Assembly: GCF_000687915.1 (NCBI RefSeq)
Contig: NZ_JHZY01000004.1
Location: 2,242,001 to 2,306,000 of the forward strand
Direction: 5' to 3'
DNA length: 64,000 nt
DNA from: Leeuwenhoekiella sp. MAR_2009_132
GTDB taxonomy: Bacteria > Bacteroidota > Bacteroidia > Flavobacteriales > Flavobacteriaceae
The translations under genes and the position numbers were made by a program. The notes beneath the pieces are model-generated. The model did not search any database, was not told where the DNA came from, and was given only the letters and a program-made list of their open reading frames with translations. Shown here one piece after another: positions 21,228 to 21,716 of this stretch (position 1 is the stretch's first letter; every line of letters starts with the position of its first letter).

Positions 21228-21238
21228 ATGCAATGTTT

Positions 21239-21330
21239 GGGCGTTCCCCACACTAAGGTGTGGGGCGGGCTCGCAGCGCTACACGCCAGCCGTTGGCTTT
21301 GGCGGGGTAACTGCTTTGATCCCTAACGCA
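21239..21330 (+). repeat. Structured repeat element, copy A (three-way-junction fold)
   Basis: GC-rich element in an AT-rich genome. It folds as a closing stem GCGTT (21241-21245) with AACGC (21325-21329), hairpin 1 of 8 bp (CCCCACAC 21246-21253 with GTGTGGGG 21258-21265), the conserved block CGGGCT, then CGCTA, hairpin 2 (CGCCAGCC with GGCTTTGGCG, two-base bulge), and the block ATCCCT before the closing strand. Copy B shares all blocks with different stem sequences. It lies immediately upstream of the carboxylase gene. Confidence 0.8.
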
Positions 21331-21419
21331 GGATTGAATTGTAACGAAAATACGAAATCGACATCGTAATCTTCAGTTATATTTATATGAAAAAAACGAT
21401 ATTTGTTTTTTACATTACT

Positions 21420-21521
21420 TGCGTAAGGGATAGCAGCGGCATCCTGCTCTGAAACTTAAACGAAAGAGCAGATATAGCGAATAGCCCGACTCTATTAGTT
21501 TTTACTAATAGAGTTACGCCC
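21420..21521 (-). repeat. Structured repeat element, copy B (inverted relative to copy A)
   Basis: On the minus strand it begins GGGCGTAA and folds as a closing stem GCGTAA/TTACGC, hairpin 1 of 10 bp (arms at 21490-21499 and 21504-21513, four-base loop), CGGGCT, TTCGCTA, hairpin 2 of 7 bp (CTGCTCT with AGAGCAG), and ATCCCT before the closing strand. The architecture equals copy A, while every stem sequence differs. It lies 15 bases upstream of the small membrane protein gene. Confidence 0.8.
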
Positions 21522-21536
21522 TAAATCTAAAAACCA

Positions 21537-21716
21537 ATGATGAATAAAAATACAGTACTAAGCTGGGCAACCTTTATTATGATTGTTGTAGGTCTGGCAC
21601 TTATAGCATTAGGTGCTTTTAGATATAACGAAATCGCCGGTTACGGTTTTGCCGCAGTGGGAGTTGGTTTTTTTGCAATTGCCTGGGTATTTAATGCATT
21701 AAAGGGTCGTGTCTAA
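21537..21716 (+). CDS. Small two-helix membrane protein (CAL67264-like family)
   Basis: A 59-residue product starting MMNKNTVLSW with two hydrophobic helices separated by a short polar turn (RYNEIAG) and a basic C-terminus (LKGRV). I associate it with the flavobacterial family of small membrane proteins named CAL67264, from memory. The start may be either of two adjacent ATGs (21537 or 21540). Its stop overlaps the start of the DinB gene by one base (TAATG), which is strong evidence for a real, translationally coupled gene. Function unknown. Confidence 0.8.
   Translation: MMNKNTVLSWATFIMIVVGLALIALGAFRYNEIAGYGFAAVGVGFFAIAWVFNALKGRV

What the first reader, a model, noticed from the sequence alone, without database searches (positions are those of the whole stretch)
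21239..21521. Inverted pair of a covarying three-way-junction element
Two elements of about 92 and 102 bases, in opposite orientation with their closing ends about 90 bases apart, share short conserved blocks (GGGCGT, CGGGCT, CGCTA, ATCCCT, ACGCA) in the same order. Between the blocks lie two hairpins. The stem sequences differ completely (8 bp CCCCACAC type versus 10 bp CTCTATTAGT type; 7-8 bp second hairpin), yet pairing is kept, and the closing stem also covaries (GCGTT/AACGC versus GCGTAA/TTACGC). Such compensatory change between two copies shows selection on structure, as RNA or as single-stranded DNA. Copy A abuts the carboxylase gene, copy B the small membrane protein gene. It could be a REP-like palindromic element mobilised by a tyrosine (RAYT-type) transposase, or a structured RNA family. 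I faintly remember similar intergenic repeats in flavobacterial genomes but know no name.
Basis: partly seen in the sequence, partly recalled or inferred. Interest (0 to 1): 0.75.

Follow-up and report, generated by a model that had tools for sequence, protein, structure and literature searches.

The report
Flavo-1 repeat, three-way-junction type
Two copies of a known but unexplained bacterial repeat (Flavo-1) sit here head to head; they fold into a three-armed shape that the reference model only half describes, and the same shape turns up in some bacterial viruses, in a few of them right after the DNA-packaging gene.

Summary
Copy B (21419-21522, +) is a Flavo-1 RNA (Rfam RF01705, 42.9 bits, cut-off 42). 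Rfam misses copy A (21238-21331, -), but a model I built from 13 copies without A finds it. Rfam models one hairpin. The full element is a three-way junction: closing stem, conserved core stem, variable third hairpin. All five helices covary (265 two-sided changes). The genome holds at least 25 copies; one congener at least 104, with tandem arrays. Pairing is almost purely Watson-Crick with no clear strand excess of G-U. Copies lie between genes in all orientations. This fits a folded DNA repeat better than a regulatory RNA. The proposed RAYT transposase is absent from this genome and the 104-copy one. The same type occurs in phage contigs. Where a terminase gene of one family was in view, the element lay 1-25 bp from its 3' end, antisense, in 16 of 19 contigs (13 of 16 without duplicates). 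That tally is partly circular (3 of 6 in contigs new to it), and 5 isolated phages lack the element. Mobiliser and function are unknown.

The parts
21238..21331 (-). Copy A, whole type II element, 5' end at 21331
   Evidence: R1 31.6 bits, E 5e-5; orthologues in five congeners
21241..21329 (-). Copy A closing stem P1: arms 21329-21325 (GCGTT) and 21245-21241 (AACGC)
   Evidence: fold
21267..21323 (-). Copy A core hairpin P2 (GGGAT...AGCCC)
   Evidence: fold
21246..21265 (-). Copy A third hairpin P3 (8 bp, CCCCACAC/GTGTGGGG)
   Evidence: fold
21419..21522 (+). Copy B, whole type II element
   Evidence: R1 77.2 bits (B is one of the 13 sequences in R1); RF01705 42.9 bits over 21416-21495
21421..21519 (+). 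Copy B closing stem P1: arms 21421-21425 and 21515-21519
   Evidence: fold; absent from the Rfam model (structure line)
21427..21487 (+). Copy B core hairpin P2, the part that Rfam models
21489..21514 (+). Copy B third hairpin P3 (11 bp stem, 4 nt loop in the computed fold)
   Evidence: absent from the Rfam model
21345..21352 (-). TATTTTCG, promoter -7-like box of the carboxylase gene, 13 nt before A; a like box is seen in the congener leaders printed (promoter reading is inference)
21398..21405 (+). GATATTTG, promoter -7-like box of the small membrane protein gene, 13 nt before B (inference)

Best explanation
A and B are two copies of a dispersed, non-autonomous DNA repeat, the three-way-junction (type II) form of Flavo-1. 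The conserved thing is the fold that one strand takes when single: stem P1, a core stem P2 with symmetric G-N-A internal loops, and hairpin P3, ending in the unpaired tail CCCA. The unit of about 90-100 bp is copied to new intergenic sites by an enzyme not yet identified, multiplies locally as tandem element-plus-spacer arrays, and is lost by deletion across its own fold. Shown: the fold, the family, copy number, intergenic location, a lineage-specific burst, one near-clean loss. Inferred: that the folded molecule is DNA, and that an outside enzyme moves it.
For: Covariation in all five helices. By one measure (RF01705, at most 65 candidates scored) G007 has 65 matches, this genome 11 and the other eleven congeners 1-17; with R1 G007 has 104 and this genome 25; arrays. 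Matches between G007 copies span the element plus at most 29 bp for one query copy (element 893-980, matches 875-1009) and 36 bp for another (element 630-717, matches 594-739), so the mobile unit is close to the folded unit. The orthologous site of one G007 copy lacks it in G012. G005 lacks the body of B by a 99-nt gap with the outer ends kept. Of 22 G007 sites 21 lie outside my ORF calls, in all four orientations. G-U cells 21 and A-C cells 12 of 1878, against G-U 10 of 168 and A-C 0 of 168 in 14 tRNAs (Fisher p 1e-4 for G-U). Predicted G-U share is no higher on the + strand than on the - strand for P3 (2.4 and 3.1%) or outer P2 (6.4 and 8.2%). A published transcriptome found Flavo-1 hits in sense or antisense indistinctly and many untranscribed (PMC9723704, passages read).
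Against: The + strand fold is slightly more stable as RNA (-28.9 and -27.7 kcal/mol, p 0.004); G-U exceeds A-C a little (21 to 12, p 0.16; 21 to 9, p 0.04, without the mostly unpaired last P1 pair); and G-N-A loops suit the + strand, as for an RNA. No mobilising enzyme was found. A and B both sit in the leaders of their genes, in sense. A is found at one place in 6 of 13 genomes of the genus, this one included, so some copies behave like fixed sites rather than movers. The tRNA control is small. The site compared in G012 is not a clean junction: G007 carries about 240 extra bp there. Copy counts are lower bounds, because only 65 or 150 candidates per genome were scored.
Confidence: 0.5

Rival explanations
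1. Flavo-1 is a structured RNA, as Rfam files it: either a small RNA or, here, a 5'-leader structure that steadies or tunes the mRNAs of the carboxylase and the small membrane protein.
For: A ends 10 nt before the carboxylase start and B 14-17 nt before the small ORF; each begins 13 nt after a promoter-like box. A and B orthologues in congeners keep their pairing through two-sided changes (the computed fold of B in G003, G002 and G009 differs). The + strand is the slightly stabler one. In F. psychrophilum several transcribed 5' regions coincide with Flavo-1 hits (PMC9723704, passage read).
Against: Only part of the copies lie upstream of a sense gene: in G007 the 3' neighbour is antisense at 15 of 21 sites, in this genome at 11 of 19 sites (my tally). 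Seven of 13 genomes of the genus show no A. G-U pairs are rare. The same paper reports hits in sense or antisense indistinctly, many not transcribed.
Confidence: 0.27
2. The pairing is kept by mutation, not by function: template switching at replication forks copies one arm of a hairpin onto the other, so palindromes repair themselves in otherwise dead repeats.
For: Pairing is nearly all Watson-Crick and close to strand-symmetric; P3 changes in whole blocks between orthologues.
Against: Unpaired core positions are as conserved as the stems (columns 13, 16, 18, 168, 172, 176 at 93-100%), which arm-to-arm copying does not explain. P1 arms are about 80 nt apart.
Confidence: 0.13
3. Type II elements are phage-linked: in one phage group they mark or flank the packaging start beside the terminase gene, and chromosomal copies descend from, or imitate, that site.
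For: Of 19 contigs with a terminase-family ORF, 16 have the element 1-25 bp from its 3' end, antisense in all 16; 13 of 16 without duplicates. Nine of these contigs have 1-10 gaps of 60 bp or more in the stretch held, the element's own gap sometimes among them. In Polaribacter phage Leef_1, same terminase family, the record ends 83 nt after the terminase stop and PhageTerm predicted Cos 3' ends, not verified by experiment (PMC8776804, passages read).
Against: The terminase profile was built from nine of these contigs, so the tally is partly circular; among contigs that played no part in noticing the pattern, 3 of 6 are adjacent. Of 47 loci that encode relatives of one such terminase only two, both with the identical protein, have the element. 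Zero of 5 isolated phages have it. In one search, 72 of 88 phage-contig elements are not beside an ORF of this family, often with none in the stretch held.
Confidence: 0.1

Closest known systems
Flavo-1 RNA (Rfam RF01705; Weinberg et al. 2010, PMC2864571)
   Same: Same core hairpin P2; B and 7 other matches in this genome pass the cut-off. Table 1 of the paper lists it as RNA 'y', cis-reg 'n', switch 'n', Bacteroidetes (passage read).
   Different: The Rfam model is one hairpin with unpaired ends (structure line). The type II element adds a covarying closing stem and a third hairpin. Rfam-like copies (type I, TAGCCCCGAT...GCGGGAAATAGCT) have a short linker instead of P3.
REP/BIME/REPIN elements with RAYT transposases
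   Same: Short, palindromic, intergenic, high copy, arrays, opposite-orientation pairs.
   Different: About 90-100 nt three-way junction rather than a 20-40 bp palindrome (start of the abstract of PMC3733652, seen in the listing) with a tetranucleotide tag (its title, and recall); no RAYT gene in G000 or G007.
Integron attC sites, IS200/IS605 ends
   Same: DNA recognised in folded single-stranded form (recalled).
   Different: No Y1 transposase in G000 or G007; integrases were not searched for. Array spacers repeat each other rather than carrying different cassettes.
phi29 packaging RNA (recalled)
   Same: A three-way junction linked to a packaging motor.
   Different: No sequence or genomic correspondence was tested; a comparison of shape only.

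Membership tests
Flavo-1 RNA RF01705 | Scores over the curated cut-off of 42 bits | tested here: met
   B 42.9 bits; A not found even at E<=10; 8 own-genome matches over cut-off
Flavo-1 RNA RF01705 | Core hairpin with its internal loops | tested here: met
   copy A keeps the outer stem but in the computed fold pairs through part of the loops
Flavo-1 RNA RF01705 | Acts as an RNA | not testable with these tools
   indirect: G-U rarity speaks against, slight + strand stability for
REP with RAYT | Y1_Tnp/RAYT gene in the genome | tested here: not met
   0 in G000 and 0 in G007
REP with RAYT | Repeats flank the transposase gene | tested here: not met
   20 Y1_Tnp loci, no RF01705 match at the curated cut-off and no R1 match at E<=1
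MITE | Fixed terminal inverted repeats | tested here: not met
   the ends pair, but two of six P1 pairs show all four Watson-Crick types
MITE | Target-site duplication | tested here: inconclusive
   A-rich flanks on both sides in G007, no constant duplication by eye
cis-regulatory leader RNA | Constant sense position before a gene class | tested here: not met
   mixed orientations
Phage packaging site | Physical genome end at the element | not testable with these tools
   only position beside the terminase ORF and the record end of one relative that lacks the element

The most novel reading that the evidence does not exclude
Flavo-1 type II is a folded DNA recognition site shared by Bacteroidota chromosomes and some of their phages. 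In a phage group it sits at the packaging-start region directly after the terminase gene, and the dozens to hundreds of chromosomal copies are packaging-site mimics or decoys that spread by being packaged, or that divert packaging.
Probability: 0.08. Interest if true: 0.88.

Novelty: new variant of a known kind. Interest (0 to 1): 0.55.

Why it matters
A 2022 review lists Flavo-1 among the most abundant bacterial small RNAs and gives no function for it (PMC9029176, passages read). Showing that many copies are a larger three-way junction, paired almost purely by Watson-Crick rules, expanding as discrete units and shared with phages, turns the question from 'which gene does it regulate' to 'which enzyme handles the folded strand'. 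The terminase neighbourhood gives a concrete, testable place to look.

Tried and rejected
RAYT link: rejected in cis. Listeria rli45, Rev13, RUF20 and mir-7637 matches at 21319-21558: far below cut-offs, chance.

Cis-regulation as a general role: rejected by orientation, kept as a rival for A and B.

Direct DNA similarity of B to named phages: none at E<=1. Type I pattern in viral contigs: 55 stretches; a regular expression kept 3, of which two look real by eye, so the phage link seems confined to type II.

A second word, CATATWTCACC, lies 6-55 bp after the terminase stop in 21 of 39 related loci (whose script stopped with an error after this table; its own line says 22, one of which lies 1.4 kb away). 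I tested it as a host repeat: 0 of 198 genomes hold AAGGTGATATATGGCG exactly.

No clear orientation bias: 3' neighbour antisense 15 of 21 in G007, p 0.08; 11 of 19 here, p 0.65.

Rows dropped: viral pattern 1 gave 62 stretches; 34 of these loci carry R1 matches at E<=0.1, 36 matches in all. Pattern 2 gave 51 stretches, nine of them already held; R1 was run on the other 42 and gave 54 matches in 38 of them. The terminase tally used 88 of these 90 matches, in 71 contigs; two weak ones (in L382 and L394) were left out. The context list covers 66 rows and omits a few others. Site 2 of the empty-site test aligned too poorly to use.

Full report
Observation. The two elements are real and at the stated place: A 21238-21331 (-), B 21419-21522 (+), 5' ends facing each other across 87 nt. 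Both fold as P1 closing stem, P2 long stem and P3 hairpin.

Identity. Rfam matches B to Flavo-1 (RF01705), 42.9 bits against a cut-off of 42; A is missed even at E<=10. The own genome has 19 RF01705 matches at E<=1, 8 over cut-off; at that loose limit 5 of 14 control genomes also ring, none over cut-off. The nearest named carboxylase in the scan is Leeuwenhoekiella parthenopeia, 92% identical, so the genus is probably Leeuwenhoekiella (inference). Rfam's structure is a single hairpin with eight unpaired bases at each end.

Structure. I aligned 13 own-genome copies (B included, A excluded) and built model R1 with P1, P2 and P3. On those 13, 95.9% of cells pair and 9 of 19 pairs change on both sides; no shuffle of 500 reaches the score. 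R1 then found A. On 113 matches (102 distinct rows) from this genome, congeners, other families and phage contigs, 95.3% of cells pair, 16 of 19 pairs change on both sides in 265 cells, against 66 in shuffles and 12-43 with slid partners. That alignment was fitted to R1 and leans towards it. A3, 45 copies of one young burst, varies little and shows only 7 two-sided cells. The core internal loops read mostly G-N-A opposite G-N-A; that these form sheared G-A pairs is recalled knowledge.

Two types. Rfam-like copies in other genera and in some congeners read TAGCCC-GAT...GCGGG-AAATA-GCT, without P3 (type I). Type II, as here, has P1 GCGTNA/TNACGC and P3. R1 matches at E<=1e-4 in 28 of 198 genomes drawn across the phylum: members of the same family, order and class, and two from outside the class with one match each.

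RNA or DNA. G-U makes 21 and A-C 12 of 1878 cells. In 14 tRNAs from the window and the G007 stretches, acceptor and T stems, G-U is 10 of 168 and A-C 0; Fisher p 1e-4 for G-U. Separately folded P3 and outer P2 show no G-U excess on the + strand. So the compensations are nearly pure Watson-Crick, as expected if DNA pairing is what is kept. Against this, the + strand is slightly stabler as RNA (p 0.004), G-U exceeds A-C a little (21 to 12, p 0.16; 21 to 9, p 0.04, leaving out the mostly unpaired last P1 pair), and the tRNA control is small.

Dynamics. R1 finds 25 copies in G000 and 104 in G007, each a lower bound since 150 of over 1000 candidates were scored; A is not among the 25, probably for that reason. 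With RF01705 the other eleven congeners have 1-17 matches, G000 11 and G007 65, the cap. An 800-kb sample of G007 has 45, in 22 sites, with arrays of up to 8 copies. Similarity between G007 copies stops within 36 bp of the element for the two query copies tried. One copy's site lacks it in G012, though the G007 gap holds about 240 further bases. At the window's own locus, R1 finds A in 6 and B in 6 of 13 genomes of the genus, this one included. The nearest, G008 (96% identical carboxylase), has neither. G005 lacks the body of B by a 99-nt gap relative to G002 and keeps the outer ends GCGTCTT and GCATCG; I read this as loss. A orthologues keep P1, P2 and P3 through two-sided changes, P3 being altered in G007 and G012.

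Location. Of 22 G007 sites one overlaps an ORF call; the other 21 show relations to the 5' and 3' neighbours of +- 8, -- 7, ++ 4, -+ 2. In this genome the 3' neighbour is antisense at 11 of 19 sites (tally, arrays as one site, A added by hand). A and B lie in the leaders of their own genes, 13 nt after promoter-like boxes; promoter consensus recalled. A published F. psychrophilum transcriptome reports that several transcribed 5' regions coincide with Flavo-1 hits, but that hits lie in sense or antisense indistinctly and many are not transcribed (PMC9723704, passages read).

RAYT. No Y1_Tnp in G000 or G007, and none of 20 fetched Y1_Tnp loci has a Flavo-1.

Phages. Of 62 viral stretches with the type II 5' half, 34 carry R1 matches; of 51 with the 3' half, 42 were new and 38 of these carry 54 R1 matches. 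Genes beside them include a prohead protease. In ten contigs a gene of about 510-570 aa ends at the element. One of nine scanned matches terminase large subunit in PHROGs, none matches Pfam, and two named phage homologues (Microcystis phages, 30-34% identical) are annotated terminase large subunit. A profile of nine found 19 of 71 contigs with such an ORF; in 16 the element is 1-25 bp from its 3' end, antisense. L246/L291, L255/L289 and L269/L298 are duplicates or near so, giving 13 of 16. Of contigs that played no part in noticing the pattern, 3 of 6 are adjacent (L296, L369, L378 yes; L257, L367, L387 no).

Verdict. A known family, seen more fully than Rfam shows it, behaving like a mobile folded-DNA repeat with an unexplained phage link. 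Literature searches for 'flavo-1' and 'RF01705' gave 3 and 4 papers, and 'Flavo-1 RNA' none. I saw passages of three of them (PMC2864571, PMC9723704, PMC9029176) and only the listing of PMC3765529 and PMC7682815. None of the passages describes P1/P3, the phage link or a function; only open-licence papers are held.

Noticed in passing
L074-L113 and G007: A congener (G007) has at least 104 similar type II copies with weakly conserved flanks (GAAAAC upstream, A-run downstream) and tandem arrays.
   Followed up: partly
L021 / G000:C2:44123-45083: Tandem array of seven type II copies on one strand in the window's own genome, with a partial copy visible in the flank of L016.
   Followed up: partly
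L245, L246, L254, L255, L259, L269, L274, L280, L289, L291, L294, L296, L298, L299, L369, L378: In these phage contigs the element lies 1-25 bp from the 3' end of a terminase-large-subunit-family ORF, antisense in each.
   Followed up: partly
L335-L365, just after the terminase stop: A different conserved word, CATATWTCACC, follows the terminase stop at 6-55 bp in 21 of 39 related loci; a 16-mer from it is not found exactly in 198 Bacteroidota genomes.
   Followed up: partly
L376, L379, L388, L389: Some viral contigs hold three type II copies within 5-10 kb, in both orientations in L376 and L379 and in one orientation in L388 and L389.
   Followed up: no
L578 (Polaribacter phage Leef_1): The record ends 83 nt after the terminase stop, and the phage was predicted to have Cos 3' ends (PMC8776804); the record is marked circular, so its origin may be arbitrary.
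   Followed up: no
window 21338-21419: Divergent promoter-like boxes 13 nt before each element make the A-B spacer look like a symmetric double promoter.
   Followed up: no
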